From: Chrysochromulina parva
Taxonomy: Eukaryota; Haptophyta; Prymnesiales; Chrysochromulinaceae
Assembly: GCA_002887195.1 (NCBI GenBank)
Contig: PJAB01001694.1
Location: 1-12,801, forward strand
Length of the DNA stretch: 12,801 bases
Direction of reading: 5' to 3'
In this document: positions 1 through 12,801 of the stretch, piece by piece
Position numbering within the stretch: the stretch's first letter is position 1
Layout of the letters: the number at the start of each line of letters is the position of its first letter
Notes under the pieces: generated by a model
The model's database searches: none
What the model saw: only the letters and a program-made list of their open reading frames with translations
What the model was told of the DNA's origin: nothing
Made by a program: the position numbers and the translations under genes

Positions 1-1473
1 TGCCGCCGGTGCGTCGCCAGTCCTTGCCCTCCTCTTGCCACGTGAACCAGTCGACCCACTCGTCGTCATGGAGCATACGCGCGCTGAACCAGCCCGTCTC
101 TGGGCCAGAGCTGATCACCGTGACCACCGTCGCAGGCCGCCAGAGCGTCGCCCCCTCCTCCTCGACCTCAATCTCGACGCGATCTCCCTCGCGCGGCCAC
201 CGCCACCCCGCGGGCGGCGGCGGCGGCAGCGGCAGCGGCGGCGGCAGCGGCGGCGGCGGCGGCTCATCCTGCGAGGCGCTCGCTTTCGAAGCGCTCGCAT
301 TCGAAGCGCTCGCATTCGGATTCTTGCCTCTAGGCGCTGGAAAGGACTCAAAGTCTTCGTCGGATGCCTCGGGCCTCAATCGCCCCTTGGCCTTGAGCTC
401 ACCCCTTTTGGCAATAGGAGAGGGCTTGGCGAGAGAGCCTTCCTTATTAGGAGAACCTTCCTTCTTTGGAGAGCTTCCCTTGGGAGCCGAGCAAGGCGCC
501 GAGCATGCATGCATGCTTGCATTCGGTCCACCAAATTTGGGCTGCGGCGCCGAGCATGCATGCCGCCGCACATTCGGTCCACCAAATTTGGGCTTATCGA
601 GGCAATTAACGCATTGGCCGCAGTCGTCGAAGTGCTCTCGTCGTTCCGCGGCGCGCGCGCGCGCTTTGGCTGCCTTAGCCGCCTTGTCCACCTCAGCCTC
701 GGCGGCTGCTTCCGTGACTGTCTTCTTGGCGAGAGAGCCTTCCTTATTAGGAGAGCCTTCCGTGACTGTCTTCTTGGCGACTGCCTTCTTGGTCGCCTTT
801 CGGTCCGACGCCGCCTCCTCTGCCGCTGCTTCCGCCTCGGCCGCCTCGGCCGCCTCCGACGCGGTCGCGCTCAGCTTGCGCTTGCCGCCGGTGCGTCGCC
901 AGTCCTTGCCCTCCTCTTGCCACGTGAACCAGTCGACCCACTCGTTGTCATGGAGCATACGCGCGCTGAACCAGCCCGTCTCTGGCCCAGAGCTGATCAC
1001 CGAGACCACCGTCGCAGGTCGCCAGAGCGTCGCCCCCTCCTCCTCGACCTCAATCTCGACGCGATCTCCCTCGCGCGGCCACCTCCATCCCGCGGGCGGC
1101 GGCGGCGGCTGTGGCAGCAGCGGCGGCGGAGGCTCATCCTGCGAAGCGCTCGCGTTCGGATTCTTGCCACTAGGCGCTGCTGCTGTCTGTCTGGCCGCAT
1201 CGCCCACGACAGCGCCATCCGCCGCCGCCTCCGACGCAGTCGCGCTCAGCTTGCGCTTGCCGCCGGTGCGTCGCCAGTCCTTGCCCTCCTCTTGCCACGT
1301 GAACCAGTCGACCCACTCGTTGTCGTGAAGCATACGCGCGCTGAACCAGCCCGTCTCTGGGCCAGAGCTGATCACCGAGACCACCGTCGCAGGTCGCCAG
1401 AGCGTCGCCCCCTCCTCCTCGACCTCAATCTCGACACGATCTCCCTCGCGCGGCCACCTCCATCCCGCGGGCG
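1..1473 (-). repeat. Three copies of a ~216-bp Tudor-like coding module
   Basis: Near-identical copies lie at 1-216, 883-1098 and 1258-1473, all in the same minus-strand frame. Copies 2 and 3 are 375 bp apart. Differences are few, for example Asp/Asn in the MLHDDEW/MLHDNEW motif. Each is preceded on the coding strand by a run of CCG/CTG proline/leucine codons and WRWP. The very low divergence points to recent duplication or ongoing gene conversion. The window cuts copy 1, so more may follow to the left. Confidence 0.9.
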
Positions 1474-3130
1474 GCGGCGGCGGCTGCGGCAGCGGCGGCG
1501 GCAAGTCGCTGACGCTCGCTGCACCCCCCTCATTCACAGTCCCCTCATTCACAGCCTCTCCGTTCATCGCGTCGTCCTGGGACCGTTTGGTGCTCACGAC
1601 GGCGCCTCGAGCCCGTGGCTGTCCGTCGATGGCGTCATGCGCCCCTGTCCTAATTAGGCTCGCGTTTGGAGACTGCCTAGTTAGGCACTCCGGCGCCTTG
1701 TCCTCGTCAGAATGGTGACCATCACGGCGCTGCGTGAGGAAGGCAAACCTGACGACCGAGAAACGCAGCGGCACTCAGCGGCACGCAGCGGCACTCAATG
1801 GCACTCGGTAGCACTCTGGCACTCAGTGGGGTGGCACTCAGTGGGGTGGCACTCAGCATGCAATGAGGGAGGCACTCAGCATGCAATGAGGGCGGCACTC
1901 AGTGGGGTGGCTCTCAGCATGCACTCCGCGTACCACCAGGAGGATTGCCATCGTTCCCCACAGACGTTACACTCGAGCGTGTCCTCAGCGTCCTCGCATG
2001 CACGGCCAAAGCCGTTACATCTCCACGTAGGCTTCACACACGCGGGCCTCGCATTGCCCTTGGCCGGCTTGCGCACCTTGGATGCATGCAATTCCTTGAG
2101 GTCCTCGGCATCATCGCCCAAGTCTTCCACGTCCGTCGCCGCCGCTTTCGCGTCAAGGCTCGTCTGCAGGAGAGGGGGCAGTCACGTCCAGTCACGTCCA
2201 GTCACGTCCAGTCACGTCCAGGTCAAGGCTCGTCTGCAGGAGAGGTGGCAGTCACGTCCAGTCACGTCAAGTCACGTCAAGTCCAGGGTCGCCAGTTTTG
2301 AAGGAAGGACAGTCGGCGGCAAGACGTGGCACTCAGAATCAGTACGTGGCCCTCAGTCGTATTCGCACTCAGCGGCTCTCCCGAAACAGTCGTATTCACA
2401 CCTCGAGCAGCTGGGCGAGCTCCTCGGCTGTGAATCGGCGCTGCGGCAACGCCGAGGCCGACGAGGCTGACACGGCGTGCCAAGGCGATCGCGCGCTCGC
2501 GTCTGCTGGCGACGGTAGCGGCGCGGGCACCAGCAGCACGGGCGCATTGCGCGGCTGCCCTGGCAACGGCTCTCCGACCATCCCGAGGGCGGTGCCGCTG
2601 GGGAGTTCGTCCGGGGTCGCGAGGCGCCATCGCACGCCGTCGAGGTCGGGGCACTTGCCAGCCACGGCGAGCTCACAGCGCGCATAGAGCGTGGCCCCAT
2701 CGAGCTGGTGCGGCCTGGGGCCTCTGGCCATGTCCGCCGCGTCCTCGCAGTACGGGCAGAACCAGTTGCCTTCGGGCTCGCGGTCCAGGGGCTCCTCGAG
2801 GCAGGCGAGGTGCCATGCTTGGTTGCAGCCGGGCGTGTCGCAGAGCAAGACGCAGTTGCCGGGTTCGCTATTACCCCCGCACCAGACGCAGAACATGTTC
2901 CGGATCGGGTTCGCTGCGACGCGGCCGTAGAGATCATCACAATGCCCGTTGGCTGCCGCCTGCGCCTTCACGTGGCTTTTGTAGCGGGTGCCATCCGGTG
3001 CGACGTAGACCTTGTACCGTGGCAACCTCCCGCCCGGCCCACCACCCTTGCGAGGGAAGACCTCGAGGACCCATCCGGGCCCAAGCTCGGGGTAGGGCCT
3101 CGACGAGATGCAGTTGACGGCCGGCGCCAT
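1..3130 (-). CDS. Chromatin-reader-like protein: MBD-like, PHD finger, half-CXXC and three Tudor-like modules (partial)
   Basis: Read on the minus strand as three exons, 3130-2402, 2163-1934 and 1748 to beyond base 1, giving about 903 residues with no stop in the window. The start is the ATG at 3130. Exon 1 encodes an MBD/TAM-like segment (residues 15-57: GPGW, VFPRKGG, YKVYVAPDGTRY), then a canonical C4HC3 PHD finger (C81, C84, C97, C102, H107, C110, C125, C128). Exon 2 has a Cys-rich segment (WRCNGFGRAC ... CNVCGERW) that I do not recognise. Exon 3 has a CGQCVNC-LDKPKFGGPN half-CXXC motif near residue 696 and three copies of a Tudor-like module (REGDRVEIEVEEEG, WVDWFTWQEEGKDWRR), each with a poly-proline lead-in and a KRKLSATASEA tail. 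The frames join in phase at both introns (phases 0 and 2). The second donor (1933) is the less certain call. Known members of these domain families read histone marks or CpG DNA in the nucleus; that role here is inferred from domains only. Confidence 0.75.
500..633 (-). other. Half-CXXC zinc-binding motif with a duplicated KFGGPN tail
   Basis: The minus-strand translation shows DCGQCVNCLDKPKFGGPN followed by VRRHAC at about 633-553, and then a second PKFGGPN...MHAC at about 543-500. The full CXXC finger of DNMT1/MLL/TET-type proteins has two CGxCxxC half-sites, followed by a KFGG element and a final Cys. Only one CGxCxxC is present here, while the KFGG-to-Cys part is doubled. Zinc and CpG binding are therefore uncertain. 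Confidence 0.7.
1749..1933 (-). repeat. Second intron of the chromatin-reader gene, filled with GAGTGCC repeats
   Basis: On the coding strand the intron runs from a proposed GTACGC donor at 1933 to a TCGTCAG acceptor at 1750-1749, joining TGG-TG to G-TTT in phase. It is built of GAGTGCC(A/G)CCCCACT and GCATGCTGAGTGCC units, and the first unit overlaps GGAGTGCATGCTGAG just past the donor. The other acceptor reading (CACGCAG) also keeps the frame, so the boundary is provisional. Confidence 0.55.
2164..2401 (-). repeat. First intron of the chromatin-reader gene, with a duplicated acceptor and a GTGACTGGAC array
   Basis: The donor is GAG|gtgtga at 2401 and the acceptor CTCCTGCAG|ACG ends at 2164. 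A second copy of the acceptor plus exon start (CTGCAG ACGAGCCTTGAC) lies 70 bp upstream in transcript order, starting at 2233. The two are separated by four copies of a decamer reading AGTCACGTCC on the plus strand, and further copies follow beyond. Using the distal acceptor leads to an in-frame TGA, so the proximal acceptor is needed for the long protein. Confidence 0.75.
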
Positions 3131-6464: not shown

Positions 6465-9400
6465 ATGCACTCGCTCTTTCGCTTGAAGGACAGCCGAAAG
6501 ACGGAAGCCGCGCAGGCAGCCGCGCCGGGCAGCTCCGTCACCCGCTATGTCAACTGCCGGCTGCTCATCGGCCACGAGCTGCGCAAAGGCCAGGATCTGT
6601 GGGTGCGGGACGGCTCGGTCGCCGATCCGAAGCAGCTCTTCTGGGAGGGTCGCTCCGCGGACACGACTATTGACTGCCAGGGCCGCATTCTCGCCCCGGG
6701 GTTCATCGACCTCCAGGTGCTCGCGCACGCTCCAGCCAGCGCTCGCCCACGTCCCTGCTGCCAGGCTCTGCGCTCTGACGCGCGCCGCCGCGTGTCCGGC
6801 TGCTCCTCGTCGCGTCGCTCCTCCGTGCCGCAGCTCAACGGCGGCTTCGGCGCGGACTTTTGCATGCCCGAGCCGGGGCTCGAGGCCGGGCTGCGCCTCT
6901 GCGCGCGTCGGCTCGTCGAGTTTGGCGTGACCGCCTTCTTGCCCACGGTACTGATTGCCTCTGATTGCCTCTGATTGCCTCTGATTGCCTCTGATTGCCT
7001 CTGAGTTTGGCGTGACCGCCTTCTTGCCCACGGTAAACACCCCTCCTCGCTGGAGCCCTCGTACTGCGCCAGCCTGCCGAGGCATGTACGTGCTCAGTAC
7101 GGCGCCTACGCCTCCCTCTCCTCAGGTGATCACGTCCTCGTTCGAGAACTACTGCGCCATCTTGCCGAGGATCGTGCCCACGACGGCGTCGCGTGAGAAG
7201 GGTGCTGCCGTGCTCGGTGTCCATCTGGCTTGCATGCAGGTGCTCACCACAGCGCGCGCCCCCCCTCCATTCCCCACAGGTGCTGCCGTGCTCGGTGTCC
7301 ACCTGGAGGGGCCCTTCATCTGCCTGGAGAAGAAGGGGTGCCACCCGGCTGAGCACATCCGCGACGCCGACGGCGAACCAAACGCGCTGCGCCGGGCGTG
7401 CGGCTCCACAGCCTACGTCAAGATGGTGGGCAGCACCCTCGCCGCCGAAGCGATGGCGCATGCGTTCTGATGGCCTCTCCGAAGGCGTCCCTCATCAGCG
7501 GAGCAATGGCGCATGCATCCCCGGAGCGATCTGATGGCCTCTCTGATGGCGTCCCTCATCAGGTGACCATCGCCCCGGAGCGGCCCGGAGCGATCTGATT
7601 GCATGCTGATGGCGTCCCTCATCAGGTGACCATCGCCCCGGAGCGGCCCGGAGCGATCTGATTGCATGCTGATGGCGTCCCTCATCAGGTGACCATCGCC
7701 CCAGAGCGGCCCGGAGCGATGGCATGCATCAAGGAGCTCGTTGCGCAAGGCGTGGTCGTCTCCGCGGGTCACTCGAATGCGAGCGCCGACCAGGTGAGAT
7801 GGCCTCTAATTGCCTCTGATTGCCTCCGATTGCCTCTCCGCGGGTCACTCGAATGCGAGCGCCGACCAGGTGAGATGGCCTCTGATTGCCTCTGATTGCC
7901 TCTGATTGCCTCTCCGCGGGTCACTCGAATGCGAGCGCCGACCAGGTGAGATGGCCTCTAATTGCCTCTGATTGCCTCCGATTGCCTCTAATTGCCTCTA
8001 ATTGCCTCGAATTGCCTCTAATTGCCTCTGATTGCGTATCGAATGCGAGCGCCGACCAGATGGAAGCGGCGCAGGCGGCAGGCGTCAGCATGGTCACACA
8101 TCTATTCAACGCCATGCCCGCCTTTCATCCCTGTGCGCGGCCATTGATTGCGCCTTTCATCCCATTGATTGCGCCTTTCATCCCCGTGCGCGGCCATTGA
8201 TTGCGCCTTTCATCCCTTTGATTGCGCCTTTCATCCCCGTGCGCGGCCATTGATTGCGCCTTTCATCCCCGCGAGCGACTACTGTGTGCGTCTGAGTGAG
8301 TTTGATAGCCTCTGAGGATCGCTAATGATCCCTTGATGACCATTTGATGACCTCTATTGACCTCTGATTGTCAACGCTCACCACGGCGCTCTCGCAGGCG
8401 AGCCGGGCATCATCGGCATCCTCGGCTCCGCTTCGTCAACGGCTCCCAAAGGAGGCTCGGCTTCGTCAACGGCTGCCAAAGGAGCGGCGGCGACGCGCAC
8501 TCCCTTTTTTGGGTTGATCGCGGACGGTGTGCATGTACACCCGGCGTCGGTCAAGCTCGCGCATCAGGTGTGCCCTCTGATGACCTCTGATGACCTCTGA
8601 GGACCTCTGAGGACCCCTGATGACCCCTGATGACCTCTGCTGGTCGCGCTCACACGCCAGGTACGCCCGCGCTCCGTCGTGCTTGTCTCCGACATCATGC
8701 GCTCACGACGGCGCCGACGCTTCCCCACAGGTGCGCCCGCGCCAAGTCGTGCTCGTCTCCGACGCGATGGTCTGATTACCTCTAATTACCTCTAATTGCC
8801 TCTAATTGCCTCCCTCATCAGGTGCGCCCGCGCCAAGTCGTGCTTGTCTCCGACGCGATGGTCTAATTGCCTCTAATTGCCTCTAATTGCCTCCCTCATC
8901 AGGTGCGCCCGCGCCAAGTCGTGCTTGTCTCCGACGCGATGGTCGCCATGGGACTGCCTGCGGGGACCTACCATTTTGGGGGCGACACTGTCGAGGTGTG
9001 AACGCGCACGTGATTGCCGTTGATTGCGGTCGAGGTGTGAACGTGCACGTGATTGCCTTTGATTGCGGTCGAGGTGTGAACGTGCACGTGATTGCCTTTG
9101 ATTGCGGTCGAGGTGTGAACGCGCACGTGATTGCCTTTAAGTAGCCTCTGAGGGACCTCTGAGCGGATCTGATTGGCCTCCGATGGCCTCCTTCATCAGG
9201 TCATCTCGGACGGACCTCTGATGACCTTCTGAGAGGCAGCTGATGAGCTCTGATGGCCTCTAATGAGCTCTGATGGCCTCCCTCATCAGGTCACCTCGGA
9301 CGGACGAGCCATTCGCCCCGGGACGGACACGCTCGCTGGGACAGTCTTGCCCTTGGATGAATGCATGCGCCGATTCCGCAAGTTCACCGGCTGCTCCCTG

Positions 9401-10198
9401 GTGGAAGCGCTCGAGGCGGCCTCGCTGCACCCAGCCCAAGCCTTAGGGATTGAGAACCGCAAGGGGACTCTCGAGGTGGGTGATTGCTCTTGATTGCTCT
9501 TTGTTGACGCCCACTGATGGCCCACTGATTGTCCACTGATGGTCCACTGATGGTCAACCTGATGGCTCTCGGATTGCCTCCCTCATCAGGCTGATTGCCT
9601 CCCTCATCAGTCTGATTGCCTAATATGGCCCTCGGATTGCCTCCCTCATCAGGTGGGCGCAGATGCGGACTTCGTACTACTCGACGACGAGCTGCACGTG
9701 TGCGCCACGTACCTGCAGGGCGAGCAGGCATGGCCTCTGATGACCTCTAATGACCTCTGATTGCCTCTAATTGCCTCTATTTTACTCTAATTGCGTATCG
9801 AATGCGAGCAGGCATGGCCGTTGCCAGAGGGCACCGAGCCCGGCCCTCTAGTACATCAACCTTGGGCGTCCGTGGCGACACCGCAGGTACGAGTGCCACT
9901 GATGGCCTCTGATGACCTCTGATGACCTCTGATGGCCACTGATGACCTCTGATGACCTCTGATGGGGCTCTGATGGCCTCTTGATGGCCACTGATGGCCA
10001 CTGATGGCCACTGATTGCCTCTGATGGCCTCTGATGGCCACTGATTGCTTCTGATGATGGATGGTTGCCTCTGATGATGGCCACTGAGTGTGACAGATGG
10101 CCACTGATGAAACCCATGGGCGCCCCGTGACGATGCCGCAGAAGCAGACGACGGCGGAGGCGGGTGCCAAGCGACGACGTGTGGCGGCGCACTCATGA
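6465..10198 (+). CDS. nagA: N-acetylglucosamine-6-phosphate deacetylase (NagA/AMDHD2 family), 12 exons
   Basis: Exons: 6465-6716, 6834-6947, 7126-7201, 7280-7425, 7689-7793, 8060-8132, 8398-8567, 8903-8995, 9290-9475, 9653-9727, 9812-9886, 10142-10198. They sum to 474 codons including TGA. The family hydrolyses GlcNAc-6-P to GlcN-6-P and acetate in the cytosol. Visible landmarks: APGFIDLQ-LNGGFG (metal-site strand and substrate loop), HLEGPF with metal-binding E157, SAGHS (H224), THLFNAM (H245), GLIADGVHVHP, VLVSDAM with catalytic D323, and DADFVLLDD near the C-terminus. All key residues are present and the length is close to the family's (human about 409 aa) plus N- and C-terminal extensions. 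Junctions are in phase; nearly all are GT-AG, and intron 10 is GC-AG. The last exon adds a basic tail (KRRR). The first exon's ATG is the only in-frame Met before the conserved region. Most introns carry duplicated exon edges. Confidence 0.9.
6717..6833 (+). other. Deacetylase intron 1, 117 nt, frame-preserving
   Basis: CTCCAG|gtgctcg...gtgccgcag|CTCAACGGC. It is a multiple of three and has no stop, so retention would insert 39 residues. The family motif GFIDxQ-xNGGFG is restored only when it is removed. Unlike its neighbours it shows no exon-edge copies or TGATTGCC repeats. Confidence 0.75.
6948..7125 (+). repeat. Deacetylase intron 2: duplicated donor-side exon edge
   Basis: The exon end GAGTTTGGCGTGACCGCC...CCCACG|gta occurs twice, with donors at 6948 and 7033 (85-bp offset). 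Between them are five TCTGATTGCC-type units. Use of the second donor reads into TGA at once, so the first donor is the productive one. The acceptor is CTCTCCTCAG|GTGATC. Confidence 0.85.
7202..7279 (+). repeat. Deacetylase intron 3: a 78-bp tandem duplication of the exon start
   Basis: GGTGCTGCCGTGCTCGGTGT occurs at 7201 and 7279, 78 bp apart, with one difference in the following bases (CAT/CAC). The donor is G|GTGCTG and the acceptor CCCCACAG|GTGCTG, so intron and downstream exon begin with the same sequence. The intron length is a multiple of three and it is open in frame. Confidence 0.88.
7426..7688 (+). repeat. Deacetylase intron 4: exon 5 start repeated three times at a 63-bp period
   Basis: Acceptor plus exon start (CTCATCAG|GTGACCATCGCC...GGAGCGAT) occurs at 7563, 7626 and 7689. 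Only the last continues into the true exon; the first two read GCGATCTGA and stop. More diverged GCGATGGCGCATGC fragments lie at about 7448 and 7499. The donor is AAGATG|gtgggc. Confidence 0.88.
7794..8059 (+). repeat. Deacetylase intron 5: exon 5 end repeated at a 76-bp period, and again at the acceptor
   Basis: The unit TCCGCGGGTCACTCGAATGC...GACCAG|gtgaga has donors at 7794, 7870 and 7946. A fourth partial copy, TCGAATGCGAGCGCCGACCAG without the GT, forms the acceptor itself (ending at 8059). The spaces are filled with TGATTGCCTC/TAATTGCCTC units. Donor and acceptor thus both lie at the ends of copies of one exon segment. Confidence 0.9.
8133..8397 (+). repeat. Deacetylase intron 6: six copies of the exon 6 end
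   Basis: GCGCCTTTCATCCC-type units occur once in the exon and five times in the intron. The exon copy and two of the others are followed by a GTGCGCGG donor. The last is followed by GCGAGCG, matching the start of exon 7. The exon copy ends CCCT and gives Cys at the junction, whereas the intronic copies end CCCC and would give Arg. The acceptor is GCTCTCGCAG|GCGAGCC. Confidence 0.8.
8424..8483 (+). repeat. 30-bp coding tandem repeat in deacetylase exon 7
   Basis: Two 30-bp units (8424-8453, 8454-8483) encode GSASSTAPKG and GSASSTAAKG. This low-complexity insert lies between ILGS and FFGLIADG, a place where the family usually has a short loop. Confidence 0.9.
8568..8902 (+). repeat. Deacetylase intron 7: exon 8 start repeated four times
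   Basis: Acceptor-AG plus GTGCGCCCGCGCCAAGTCGT-type copies begin at 8661 (most diverged), 8731, 8822 and 8903 (the true exon). Spacing is 70, 91 and 81 bp. Copies 2 and 3 run into TGA or TAA right after GATGGTC. The first part of the intron is GATGACCTCT units. Confidence 0.9.
8996..9289 (+). repeat. Deacetylase intron 8: exon 8 donor repeated at a 39-bp period, plus one copy of the exon 9 start
   Basis: GGTCGAG|gtgtgaac occurs four times with donors at 8996, 9035, 9074 and 9113. An acceptor copy CTTCATCAG|GTCATCTCGGACGGAC begins at 9200, upstream of the true exon at 9290. Later donors read GTCGAGGTGTGA, a stop. Confidence 0.88.
9476..9652 (+). repeat. Deacetylase intron 9: reiterated acceptor modules
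   Basis: TGATTGCCTCCCTCATCAG-type modules occur three times before the exon at 9653; the earlier two end AG|GC and AG|TC. GATGGTCCACT units precede them. The intron begins GTGGGTG and the downstream exon GTGGGCG, a short echo of the junction. Confidence 0.8.
9728..9811 (+). repeat. Deacetylase intron 10: GC-AG intron bounded by a 16-bp direct repeat
   Basis: GCGAGCAGGCATGGCC is found at the exon 10 end and again at the exon 11 start. Cutting before GCATGG in both copies (GAGCAG|gcatgg ... gagcag|GCATGG) gives a continuous in-phase reading GEQAWPLPEG. The donor is therefore GC rather than GT. The interior is TGATGACCTC/TAATTGCCTC units. Confidence 0.75.
9887..10141 (+). repeat. Deacetylase intron 11: GATGGCCTCT array bounded by copies of the exon end
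   Basis: The exon ends GTGGCGACACCGCAG|gtacga and the acceptor is GTGACGATGCCGCAG|AAGCAG, 12 of 15 bases alike. The middle (about 9898-10110) is an array of TGATGGCC(A/T)C and TGATGACCTC. Antisense frames through it are open because of composition only. Confidence 0.75.
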
Positions 10199-10273
10199 CC
10201 GACCCGATTATTCGAAGCGCGATTGTATACCCGATCAGGCGCACTCATGACCCACCCGATTACTCGAAGCGCG
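10186..10273 (+). repeat. 36-bp direct repeat spanning the deacetylase stop codon
   Basis: 10186-10221 and 10238-10273 are alike except for two bases, at an offset of 52 bp. The first copy holds the TCATGA end of the deacetylase gene. The rest of 10199-10323 has no gene that I can see; it precedes the EMC1-like remnant. Confidence 0.85.
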
Positions 10274-10323
10274 TGAACGGTTTCGATGGGTTTCGTCACG
10301 CCCCTCCACATGTGCTCTCGCAG

Positions 10324-10669
10324 AGCTATTCGTTCGCCGCGCCGGTCGAAGCCCTCGCAGTCACCCAAACAGTGCAGGGCATCACGCCCAAGTACGTCCT
10401 CTCATGACCTCGGATGACCTCGGATGATCTCTGATGGCCTCTGAGGACCTCTGATGACCTCATCACGCCCAAGCTCGTCCTCGCCGCCACTCGGATGGCG
10501 CCTCTCATCACCGCTGATTGCCCCCTTGATCAGGTTCATCCTCGCCACCACGAGCGCCGGCCAGCTCGTGCAGCTCGATAAGCGCTTTCTCGATCGCACG
10601 CCGGCCGATGTTCCGGGCGGCCCCCAGAAAATGTCCGCTGAGGACCGCGAACTTCCCCAAGTTTTGTAA
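10324..10669 (+). pseudogene. EMC1: Remnant of EMC1 (ER membrane protein complex subunit 1), both ends missing
   Basis: Two exons, 10324-10391 and 10534-10669, joined at AA|gtacgt...TTGATCAG|G, read SYSFAAPVEALAVTQ..GITPK-FILATTSAGQL..LDKRFLDRTP and end in TAA. EMC1 of animals and plants has the same order near its C-terminus: QSY, then GIT(S/P)xxLL, then a SGQ/LxxLDxRxLDPRRP stretch. In the full protein this is followed by a conserved luminal segment and a transmembrane helix. Here the stop comes right after the LDxR region, and nothing upstream of CAG|AGCTAT resembles the large N-terminal beta-propellers. EMC1 is about 1000 aa, so this is roughly 68 codons. It could be a dispersed fragment, a break point, or an assembly join. 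The intron is still cleanly spliceable. Confidence 0.65.
10392..10533 (+). repeat. EMC1 intron containing an uninterrupted copy of the exon junction
   Basis: Inside the intron, 10462-10492 reads ATCACGCCCAAGCTCGTCCT and then CGCCGCCACT. The spliced junction reads ATCACGCCCAA|GTTCATCCTC and then GCCACCACG. The intronic copy therefore runs straight across the place where the exons are split. GATGACCTC units flank it. Confidence 0.8.
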
Positions 10670-10902
10670 TCGCTGGACGATTCCTAATCACAAAAAAGGC
10701 AAAAAAGAAGGCAAAAAAGCATCGGTTTCGGGTTTGACTTTTGGTTCTTCACACACCGTCATCGACGATGCACAAAAGACCCTTCGCCTGTAACAGATCC
10801 AGATGAGCAAGTTCTGGAGTTTTGGGCGAACGCGTTCATTGGTTTCGGTGTGTGGTCCCGCGGTGTGTGTGGAGGCGACCTCTCCACGGCACGGCAGCAC
10901 TC
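10670..10902 (+). promoter_or_regulatory. Upstream region of the TIR gene, A-rich, with an upstream ATG
   Basis: It begins with A-tracts (AAAAAAGGC repeated three times at about 10690-10720) and has no intron-type repeats. An upstream ATG at 10803 opens a 56-codon frame that ends at 10971-10973, past the main start at 10903 and in another frame. Alternatively, an intron with a GTGGTC donor near 10852 and a CGGCAG acceptor near 10897 would join this ATG in frame to the main reading. The promoter role is inferred. Confidence 0.4.
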
Positions 10903-12801
10903 ATGGATTTTCTCCCCGAGGCGCATGGGGATCGCTTCGTCGTGCCACGCGCAATCACAATCGAGCAGCTTGAGGGATGCAAGCGCCGAGCGCCCATGCA
11001 GCTCCCCAAAGGCGTCCTGTACAGAGATTTCTACCCCTCCATTGTTGTGACGTATGCATCGGGTCGCCGTACCAATCGCAAAGACGCTGCAGACGACTGC
11101 GAAGGCTCCGGGCCCGGCGTGATGTACGCCATGGGGCTGATGGAGTTCTTCCACGAGCGCGGCCTGCAGTGCTTCTCCGGGCTGCAAGTGCCCCCGGGCG
11201 TGGACTGGGAGACCTTTATGCTGCGCTTGACTGGCGAGAATGGGAAGCGTGAGAAGCCCAAGGTGCTGATCATCATCCTCACCGCGGGATTGTTCCACTC
11301 AAAGCCCTGCCTGAAGGAGATTGACACGGCCATCAAGAACAAGATCGCTCTCCTACCGGTGCGCTTTGAGGACAGATTGCCAGCCAAAGAGGAGCAGTGG
11401 ACGAATCTCGACGACCCGGTTTGGGAGATGCGGAAATTTCACGTACAAGCCAAACTTAACAAGCTCAACAACATCCCCAACCCCGGCACGGTGCTCAACA
11501 GAGCCACAGCCCTGGAAGACATCCTGGCGGAGCTCGAGAAACATCTTCCGGCACCGGCGAGCCCTGCCACGAGCACGCCCACGCCGCAGCCGCCTCCGCC
11601 CACCAAACCCTCCGGTGGGCCGTCAGGTGGGCCGCGCTTCCCCGTCGGCAGCCGCGTGTACGTGGATCAAGGCCACGGACAGGCGCGTCTCGGCCATGTG
11701 GCGACGTACAATGCGGCGAAGGGCACGTACACGGTGGAGCTCGGAGAGCGCGGCTCCGGCGAGCTCGATACGTGCTTCGACCAAGATCTGCGAAATGCCG
11801 ACGGCCCGCTTTCGCAGCTCATCGACTCTGCACGCGAGAGGGTGGGGAGCTTGTTCGGAGTCACCCCATTGGTCATAGATCGCGAGGGTGCGACGACGGA
11901 AAACGCAACTGCCTCCAAGCCCACGCCGCAGCCCCCGGCGAGCCCTACCAAGCCTGCGCCCAAGCCTCGCGCGCAAGCCGAGCCATTCATTCAGGACCTG
12001 GACGGCCCTCCGAGATCACCATCTCGCGCTGTGGAGCAAGGCGCTGAGGCAACTCCCGAAGACGCGAAGGTCGTCGAGCCAGTGCTCGAGTCGACCGACA
12101 GCGTGCCTACGGAAGTTGTGGAGCCGGCGGCCGGAGCGGCGACAGAGGCAGAGCCGGCGCCGGCAGAGGCGTCGGCCGAGACGAGGAACCCGATCTTCGA
12201 GATCGGCAGCTCCTTTATCGACGCGATCGTGCAGGCCTTCACGCCGCGTGGAACGTCCGTGCGAGCCAATACCATCAACGACGCGGATGACATCGACGAC
12301 GACATCGACAATGCTGCGCGGCCCACCGTGGCCATTGGCGCTCCGTCCGAGGAGATGATTCGCGTCCTTTCGGGGCTCGACAACCGGCTCGCCGACGCGC
12401 TCCGCACCGGCGACATCAAGCTGCTGCGTGTCTCGTGGCTGCGGCGGTTGCGGGGGCTACTGCGGCAGCCAGACTGGAGGTCGCTGAAGCGGCGGCAGGA
12501 GCTCGAGGCGCTGAGGGCTGAGTCGCCCTTCCTCTCGGCGGAGGAGGCCGTCGCGCTGCTCCGGCGTGGCAACCGCGGCGTTGGCGCGCTCACCCACGGC
12601 TGGCTGTCGCCCGGTGAGTGCGACCCGGACGGCGCGCGCCTGGACATGGTGCTCGCTGCACTTGACGAGCACCCGCACATTGAGGGCGTCTTCTGGGACT
12701 ATGCCTCGCTCTTCCAGAACCTGCCCGACCGCGAGCGCACGCCCGACGAGAGGGCCGCCTTTGGTCGCGCGATCAAGGTCATGGCCGACGTGTACGCCTC
12801 C
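10903..12801 (+). CDS. TIR-like / Tudor-like / HET-like multidomain protein (C-terminus outside the window)
   Basis: A single open frame of 633 codons from ATG 10903 to the window edge, without introns or intron-type repeats. Residues about 45-165 resemble a TIR domain: IVVTYASG, then GVMYAMGLMEFF and FSGLQVPPGVDW, then KVLIIILTAGLFHSKPCLKEI and IALLPVRFE. In NAD-cleaving TIRs such as SARM1 the catalytic Glu lies in a comparable KEI context; here the candidate is E139. A Pro-rich linker leads to a Tudor/KOW-like module (about 246-300: FPVGSRVYVDQG, RLGHVATYNAAKGTYTVEL). A second Pro/Ala/Glu-rich linker (about 330-440) follows. The end (about 560-633) has ALTHGWLSP, GVFWDYASLFQ, and then an E...M..VYAS spacing like the fungal HET domain's WIDALCINQ and M..IY. 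HET folds are related to TIR. Function is unknown; a signalling or cell-death role is inference. The first in-frame ATG after the stop at 10804 was chosen as the start. Confidence 0.75.
   Translation, partial: MDFLPEAHGDRFVVPRAITIEQLEGCKRRAPMQLPKGVLYRDFYPSIVVTYASGRRTNRKDAADDCEGSGPGVMYAMGLMEFFHERGLQCFSGLQVPPGVDWETFMLRLTGENGKREKPKVLIIILTAGLFHSKPCLKEIDTAIKNKIALLPVRFEDRLPAKEEQWTNLDDPVWEMRKFHVQAKLNKLNNIPNPGTVLNRATALEDILAELEKHLPAPASPATSTPTPQPPPPTKPSGGPSGGPRFPVGSRVYVDQGHGQARLGHVATYNAAKGTYTVELGERGSGELDTCFDQDLRNADGPLSQLIDSARERVGSLFGVTPLVIDREGATTENATASKPTPQPPASPTKPAPKPRAQAEPFIQDLDGPPRSPSRAVEQGAEATPEDAKVVEPVLESTDSVPTEVVEPAAGAATEAEPAPAEASAETRNPIFEIGSSFIDAIVQAFTPRGTSVRANTINDADDIDDDIDNAARPTVAIGAPSEEMIRVLSGLDNRLADALRTGDIKLLRVSWLRRLRGLLRQPDWRSLKRRQELEALRAESPFLSAEEAVALLRRGNRGVGALTHGWLSPGECDPDGARLDMVLAALDEHPHIEGVFWDYASLFQNLPDRERTPDERAAFGRAIKVMADVYAS

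What the first reader, a model, noticed from the sequence alone, without database searches (positions are those of the whole stretch)
6948..10533. A gene whose introns are built from reiterated copies of their own exon edges
Ten of the eleven deacetylase introns, and the EMC1 intron, show copies or echoes of the flanking exon edge, often with the splice site. Acceptor-side copies occur in introns 3, 4, 7 and 8, donor-side copies in 2, 5, 6 and 8, and both ends in 5, 10 and 11; intron 9 shows only a short junction echo. Periods differ between introns (39, 63, 76, 78, 85 bp), so this is not one mobile element. Established: the tandem-duplication model of intron gain (duplication of an exonic AGGT so that one copy supplies the donor and the other the acceptor) predicts exactly this. 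Inference: this genome gains and enlarges introns by local tandem duplication, repeatedly and recently.
Basis: partly seen in the sequence, partly recalled or inferred. Interest (0 to 1): 0.92.

Follow-up and report, generated by a model that had tools for sequence, protein, structure and literature searches.

The report
Short insertions that make new introns
In this algal genome, short repeated DNA pieces appear to have been copied into genes while about 30 letters of the target were duplicated, so that the piece supplies one splice signal and the duplicated gene edge the other, turning the insertion into an intron that can be removed cleanly.

Summary
The repeated exon edges are real in 9 of 11 deacetylase introns; introns 1 and 9 are at chance. 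The gene model is sound. But local tandem duplication is not the main story. The introns share dispersed pieces: family A core, 1,606 copies against 0 for the reversed pattern; family B acceptor, 2,001 against 1. Beside most sampled pieces the intron's first 11-45 nt copy the downstream exon's start (A: 62/85, permuted 5/833; B: 54/90, permuted 3/434). The copied exon edge brings GT; the piece brings branch-like site, pyrimidines and AG. Mirror cases exist. A pieces without an acceptor have the same duplications, and 14 of 14 non-array ones add a multiple of three, while intron-type copies are uniform mod 3. Joined exons keep codon-usage frame in 57/80; Pfam matches cross the junction in 8 of 10 hand-picked cases. 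It works like introners or staggered-break repair, yet the duplications (median 32 nt in clean cases) are longer than the 3-9 bp (introners) and 4-12 bp (Daphnia) that I read of. Tandem duplication then enlarges introns. No RNA and no relative was available.

The parts
6465..10198 (+). N-acetylglucosamine-6-phosphate deacetylase gene, 12 exons, 473 aa
   Evidence: spliced model; best solved-structure match 7nut_A E 6e-112 over residues 18-433; Amidohydro_1 2.9e-22
6717..6833 (+). intron 1, no exon-edge copy
   Evidence: 131/300, 265/300
6948..7125 (+). intron 2; copy of the upstream exon end plus donor at 7003-7032 and on
   Evidence: score 30, 0/300 shuffles
7202..7279 (+). intron 3, family A type: 7202-7228 copies exon start 7280-7306; A core (2 mismatches) from 7232; acceptor CCCCACAG
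7426..7688 (+). intron 4; 63-bp units with acceptor CTCATCAG plus downstream exon start (e.g. 7563-7594)
7794..8059 (+). intron 5, mirror type: GTGAG filler, then a copy of the upstream exon end supplies the final AG; 76-bp units repeated
8133..8397 (+). intron 6; upstream exon end repeated in a 53-bp array; GCTCACCACGGCGC at 8376-8389 near the acceptor
8568..8902 (+). intron 7; four copies of the downstream exon start counting the exon itself, each after an AG; GCTCACGACGGCGC at 8701-8714
   Evidence: (families D11, D13)
8996..9289 (+). intron 8; 39-bp array across the donor; second acceptor plus exon-start copy at 9200-9215
9476..9652 (+). intron 9; family B acceptor, no significant edge copy
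   Evidence: (listed as none)
9728..9811 (+). intron 10, GC-AG; begins GCATGGCC like the next exon and ends GCGAGCAG like the previous exon
   Evidence: 3/300, 4/300
9887..10141 (+). intron 11; 3' end 10125-10141 resembles the upstream exon end
   Evidence: 2/300
10392..10533 (+). EMC1 intron; interior copy of the exon end at 10462-10472 (read by eye)
   Evidence: sequence; EMC1_C 7.1e-14 across the junction

Best explanation
Short pieces of a few intron families (A: about 42 nt, core GCATGCAWGTGCTCACSACGGCGC plus pyrimidines plus CAG; B: decamers CTGATKGCCT... ending CTCATCAG) have been copied into exons throughout this genome. Each insertion leaves a direct duplication of target, about 28-35 bp in the clean cases. 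If the piece ends in AG and the duplicated segment begins with GT, the first copy becomes the 5' part of a ~76-nt intron and splicing restores the original mRNA exactly. If the piece begins with GT and the duplicated segment ends in AG, the mirror intron forms. If the piece carries neither signal, the insertion stays in the mRNA and only in-frame ones are seen. Later tandem duplications across the splice edges multiply the edge copies, as in introns 4-8 of the deacetylase. Shown here: dispersal, duplication, frame behaviour, protein continuity. Inferred: that the RNA is spliced at these sites, that the duplication arises at insertion, and the enzymology. For that I favour repair of staggered breaks with intron sequence copied in as filler (template switching), about 0.45, because both ends of the inserted piece vary and no terminal inverted repeats are seen.
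For: Dispersal: A core 1,606 v 0 reversed, shorter A core 1,466 v 16, B acceptor 2,001 v 1, A with its own 5' part 95 v 0. Duplication: A 62 of 85 v 5 of 833 permuted, left copy starts GT in 52 of 62, donor-to-core distance median 34, intron length median 76; B 54 of 90 v 3 of 434, 30 of them simple single-copy cases. Intron nt 3-25: 31% identical between introns, 86% to the own downstream exon, n = 59. Mirror type at five sites by eye. Frame: 57/80 kept, 40/43 when both sides are confident, intron lengths mod 3 = 22/30/28. Acceptor-less A copies outside arrays: 14/14 divisible by three; intron-type 18/20/17 for remainders 0/1/2; 13 of these 14 are open in at least one frame. Pfam matches cross the junction in 8 of 10 chosen joined translations, 6 above the curated cut-off. 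Deacetylase.
Against: No cDNA and no related genome: splicing and gain are inferred. No empty site was found for the joined exons in the sequence held. 23 of 85 A acceptors and 36 of 90 B acceptors show no copy above threshold, 10 of 62 A left copies do not start with GT, and in many A introns the match stops 10-30 nt before the core. The plain open-frame test is weak (62, 56 and 57 of 80 for shifts 0, 1, 2). In repeat pairs found without using the pieces, AG|GT at the 5' edge was not among the top boundary tetramers (arrays swamp the list); after stricter filtering it ranked 1st (26 v 5.0 expected) and at the 3' edge 4th (18 v 5.0) of 256. A pieces on one contig are not more alike than on different contigs (415 of 2,000 permutations), so local copying has no support. 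Four light-harvesting-gene stretches containing introns show no such repeats, so not all introns are of this type.
Confidence: 0.74

Rival explanations
1. Classical tandem genomic duplication (Rogers 1989): an exonic AGGT segment is duplicated and both splice sites come from it; the intron interiors later converge or expand by slippage.
For: Edge duplications are real; intron 10 fits; arrays in introns 4-8 show ongoing tandem duplication; the potato case crosses an intron-exon edge much as introns 4, 7 and 8 do (PMC4974935, passages).
Against: The A core is the same at over a thousand sites while the flanking duplications differ from site to site; in A introns the AG belongs to the dispersed piece and is often not preceded by AG at the left copy.
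Confidence: 0.12
2. Target-primed reverse transcription of excised intron RNA: the precise AG end is the RNA 3' end, 5' truncation gives variable 5' ends, and the staggered second nick gives variable duplications.
For: Intron-type A copies end at AG and have variable 5' extents; a longer form with its own donor exists (95 copies); reverse-transcriptase domains are present (5 matches).
Against: Core-only copies lack the RNA 3' end and the mirror type has the precise end at GT. The reverse-transcriptase matches are few and weak.
Confidence: 0.2
3. A non-autonomous DNA element moved by a transposase or recombinase that makes an unusually long (~30 bp) stagger.
For: Recurrent 5' boundary at GCATGC (20 of 76 pairs with no filler) and an 8-fold recurrent right boundary directly after the core (two of these eight are tandem cassette copies).
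Against: No terminal inverted match of 6 nt or more in 59 cassettes (max 4); duplication lengths vary from 14 to 65 nt.
Confidence: 0.2
4. Ordinary old introns with repeat expansion; the shared pieces are only convergent acceptor signals.
For: Branch-like sites and pyrimidine tracts recur in all introns; four light-harvesting stretches look ordinary.
Against: A 24-nt core recurring 1,606 times, found also in reading frames without an acceptor, is not a splice signal alone.
Confidence: 0.04

Closest known systems
Introners (Gozashti et al. 2022, PMC9860276: passages and section 15 read; Huff et al. 2016 recalled, not held)
   Same: Dispersed intron-making sequence; one splice site carried and the other co-opted from the duplicated target, in either direction; mRNA restored.
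   Different: Target duplications 3-9 bp in previously described families against a median of 32 here; here the duplicated target is nearly half of the intron, so the 5' part is not shared between copies; no terminal inverted match; splice-less copies persist in frame in exons.
Staggered-break intron gain in Daphnia (PMC4202315, abstract and passages)
   Same: [quoted passage not shown] secondary rounds of duplication inside young introns.
   Different: Exon-intron repeats of 4-12 bp there; here 11-45 nt matched, and the filler is a dispersed family.
Tandem genomic duplication (Rogers 1989 as described in PMC4974935, passages)
   Same: Exon-edge duplication creates a splice site without changing the protein.
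   Different: Here one splice site comes from a dispersed piece, not from the duplicated exon.
Direct repeats near intron borders (Rogers and Bendich 2025, PMC11782384: abstract and passages)
   Same: Direct repeats at intron borders read as traces of insertion.
   Different: 4-30 bp, mean 11.4, in 213 varied introns; no shared piece.
Amoebophrya introners (PMC7789003, passages)
   Same: Repeated introns with direct repeats overlapping the exon-intron borders.
   Different: Direct repeats of 3-5 nt and inverted repeats of 8-20 nt there.

Membership tests
Introner | similar sequence in many introns at unrelated sites | tested here: met
   core shared, flanks different; the fetched A copies were chosen as exact core matches, so core identity is partly by choice
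Introner | similarity reaching both intron ends (screen used in PMC9860276, section 15) | tested here: not met
   nt 3-25 only 31% identical between introns (n = 59)
Introner | one splice site carried, other co-opted from a target duplication | tested here: met
Introner (DNA-transposon type) | short target duplication (3-9 bp) | tested here: not met
   25 clean pairs, median 32, range 15-65
Introner (DNA-transposon type) | terminal inverted repeats | tested here: not met
   none of 59 with an inverted match of 6 nt or more within 12 nt of the ends; several known families also lack them
Introner | splicing seen in RNA | not testable with these tools
   no RNA held; only frame and domain continuity
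Tandem genomic duplication | both splice sites derive from the duplicated exonic AGGT | tested here: not met
   family A: AG lies in the dispersed piece; intron 10 of the window is an exception
Staggered-break repair intron | copy of the adjacent exon edge at the other intron end | tested here: met
Staggered-break repair intron | intron absent at the site in relatives | not testable with these tools
   no relatives; no empty site in held sequence

The most novel reading that the evidence does not exclude
A class of intron birth in which insertion itself duplicates about 30 bp of the exon, so that almost any inserted fragment of an intron family becomes a working intron when it carries one splice signal, and otherwise stays as an in-frame coding insert. 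Because the 5' or 3' half of each new intron is local exon sequence, screens that ask for similarity starting near both intron ends could miss it; many apparently unique introns in algae may have this origin.
Probability: 0.55. Interest if true: 0.9.

Novelty: new variant of a known kind. Interest (0 to 1): 0.8.

Why it matters
How introns arise is a long-standing question, and fresh, readable cases are few. Here the same piece is seen in three outcomes: donor from the duplication, acceptor from the duplication, or no splicing and strictly in frame. That separates the insertion step from the splicing step. The published introner screen that I read judges similarity from both intron ends, so introns whose first 30 nt are local exon could escape it (inference). 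The alga could serve to watch intron gain between strains.

Tried and rejected
Tried without result: naming the organism (no match to a conserved small-subunit rRNA stretch; the Rfam model of the same gene did not complete). 58 light-harvesting matches and the hits of one of them say a photosynthetic alga, probably with chlorophyll c (recall from hit names); I did not place it further. Same-contig likeness of A pieces: no support. Empty sites: 98 junction-spanning BLAST rows, 13 on another contig, none an empty site as far as I judged (they match cassettes or decamers; the one odd pair, L126 against L135, is not a paralogue). Boundary statistics without a filter for arrays were uninformative. 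The piece was found in one viral-collection contig that looks chimeric (L117) and in no prokaryote contig. Fillers resemble the 5' part of the longer A form only weakly (0.377 v 0.283 shuffled, n = 41).

Rejected: 'not one mobile element'; assembly artefact as the whole cause (copies differ by substitutions, families occur on many contigs); splice-signal convergence.

Literature: eight searches of the held open library showed no report of introners with ~30-bp duplications in the listings; subscription papers, among them Huff 2016, were not seen.

Rows dropped before counts: A hits with 3 mismatches (4 of 118; v); 29 A hits without acceptor by rule, at least two of which (L009, L107) are introns that the rule missed; B hits with short flanks; array copies. 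The acceptor-less 14 include two (L015, L035) whose repeats do not abut the core; without them 12 of 12. The ten translations were picked by eye from 66. The 20 first 10-kb loci were chosen mostly for decamer arrays, and the A and B sites are the first of the lists, exact matches only.

Full report
What was checked. The window is contig C1694 of an unnamed 45.07-Mb assembly. I built the deacetylase gene from 12 exons. The 473-aa product matches N-acetylglucosamine-6-phosphate deacetylase chains, best 7nut_A at 6e-112 over residues 18-433 (that this entry is the human enzyme is recall), which covers the joints of introns 1-9. Intron 10 is GC-AG. Introns 10 and 11 lie at or beyond the conserved end, so they rest on frame and repeats.

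Exon-edge copies in the window. Against 300 dinucleotide shuffles per intron, 9 of 11 introns contain a copy that lies exactly at an exon edge (introns 2-8, 10, 11); introns 1 and 9 are at chance. Copies of 30-40 nt in introns 2, 4, 5 and 7 were not reached by any shuffle. The arrays of period 39, 63, 76 and others are confirmed.

The copies lead to dispersed pieces. Introns 3 and 7 share GCTCACSACGGCGC, which occurs 1,466 times in the genome against 16 for the reversed pattern. The longer core GCATGCAWGTGCTCACSACGGCGC with up to 2 mismatches occurs 1,606 times against 0. A second acceptor motif, GCCTCCCTCATCAGGT with up to 1 mismatch, occurs 2,001 times against 1; introns 4, 7, 8 and 9 end in it or nearly so.

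Architecture of family A. From the 118 distinct core hits found in held loci, 114 have at most 2 mismatches; 85 of these have an acceptor by a simple pyrimidine rule and 29 do not. In 62 of the 85 the bases after the AG recur upstream of the core (score 11 or more), against 5 of 833 when right flanks are exchanged between loci. The left copy begins with GT in 52 of 62. Donor-to-core distance has median 34, intron length median 76, matched length 11-45 with median 26, identity 94.7%. An example is L009: a 35-nt exact copy, a 40-nt cassette, then the exon. Across 59 such introns, nucleotides 3-25 are 31% identical between introns but 86% identical to the intron's own downstream exon, while the core is 97% identical. 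The 86% is raised by having chosen introns with a copy, and the 97% by having fetched exact core matches.

Family B and the mirror type. Of 90 B acceptors, 54 have an upstream copy of the following exon start (score 12 or more) against 3 of 434 permuted. In 34 of these 54 the left copy is itself preceded by AG: some are tandem copies of the acceptor edge, others AG|GT donors. Thirty meet a stricter definition of a simple single intron. L029, L152 and L023 are clean cases. In the 210,843 bases of larger loci, repeat pairs also show the reverse: filler beginning GT, then a copy of the upstream exon's end that supplies AG. By eye these are L023 (5479), L026 (2595), L027 (4239; 27 nt exact), L028 (9011) and window intron 5. 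Two A copies of this kind, L039 and L063, carry GTACGTTG... before the core; that longer form occurs 95 times against 0.

Splicing is inferred from frame. With a codon table from the window's deacetylase and TIR-domain reading frames, the frames on both sides agree after removal in 57 of 80 A and B introns, 40 of 43 when both sides are confident (one third expected; binomial 5e-12 and 3e-16). Intron lengths leave remainders 0/1/2 in 22/30/28 cases, so most retained introns would break the frame. A plain test for open frames is uninformative (62, 56, 57 of 80). Ten joined translations picked by eye from 66 were scanned with Pfam: a domain crosses the joint in 8, six of them above the curated cut-off (Helicase_C, PQQ_2, Glycos_transf_2, Myosin_head, UCH, U-box), two below (Aldo_ket_red, Melibiase_2), and two had no match.

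Pieces that cannot splice. Among A copies with a flanking repeat pair but no acceptor and outside arrays, the spacing of the copies is a multiple of three in 14 of 14 (2e-7); intron-type copies have 18, 20 and 17 with remainders 0, 1 and 2. Two of the fourteen (L015, L035) have repeats that do not abut the core; without them it is 12 of 12. Thirteen of the fourteen are open in at least one frame (L067 is not), and several read HASAHHGA through the core. So the duplication comes with the piece whether or not the result can be spliced, and coding selection has sorted the outcomes.

Length and ends. Where the left copy ends within 3 nt of the core, 25 pairs have median 32 nt, quartiles 28 and 35, range 15-65. 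No terminal inverted match of 6 nt or more was found in 59 cassettes. Both ends of the inserted piece vary.

Not every intron is like this. Stretches around introns of four light-harvesting genes have no direct repeat above threshold; deacetylase introns 1 and 9 have none either.

Mechanism. The pattern fits copying of intron fragments into staggered breaks, with duplication by fill-in, followed by selection for splicing or frame. Target-primed reverse transcription of excised introns explains the precise AG end and the 5' variation but not the core-only and mirror copies. A transposase with a long stagger explains recurrent ends but not the wide range of lengths. None is proved. Growth of existing introns by tandem duplication across an edge is directly visible in introns 4-8 and resembles the potato case (PMC4974935, passages).

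Against known systems. Introners with one carried and one co-opted splice site are known, in both directions (PMC9860276, passages and section 15). Previously described duplications are 3-9 bp; Amoebophrya has 3-5 nt (PMC7789003, passages); Daphnia neointrons have 4-12 bp (PMC4202315, passages); a survey of 213 introns reports 4-30 bp, mean 11.4 (PMC11782384, abstract and passages). I therefore rate this a new variant of a known kind. My literature search covers open papers only.

Noticed in passing
L117:4230-4554: A contig in the viral collection is prokaryote- or phage-like (judged by eye) for most of its length and ends in alga-like decamers plus a family A piece followed by CAG|GTGAG; probably a chimeric assembly.
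   Followed up: partly
window 6951-10461 and many loci: Tandem arrays with a 10-base period are the commonest in the 21 larger loci (92 of 442); 80 of 92 hold CTRA, a branch-site-like word, on one strand, against 2,209 of 20,000 random genomic 10-mers. The loci were partly chosen for such arrays.
   Followed up: partly
window 8424-8483: Exon 7 holds a 30-bp in-frame tandem duplication (GSASSTAPKG / GSASSTAAKG) that falls in an alignment gap against the best solved structure.
   Followed up: no
window 10110-10668: The EMC1 piece matches only positions 49-101 of 214 of EMC1_C before a stop: perhaps a truncated copy.
   Followed up: no
window 2-1774 (minus): Long open frame with three repeats of about 70 residues (PPAGWRWPREGDRVEIEVEEEG...), read by eye, not searched.
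   Followed up: no
window 10807-12801 (plus): Open frame with a weak TIR_2 match (4.9e-5, below cut-off).
   Followed up: no
L028, L035, L041, L054, L087, L088, L106: Core-only copies in reading frames can encode HASAHHGA or a close variant in different genes.
   Followed up: partly
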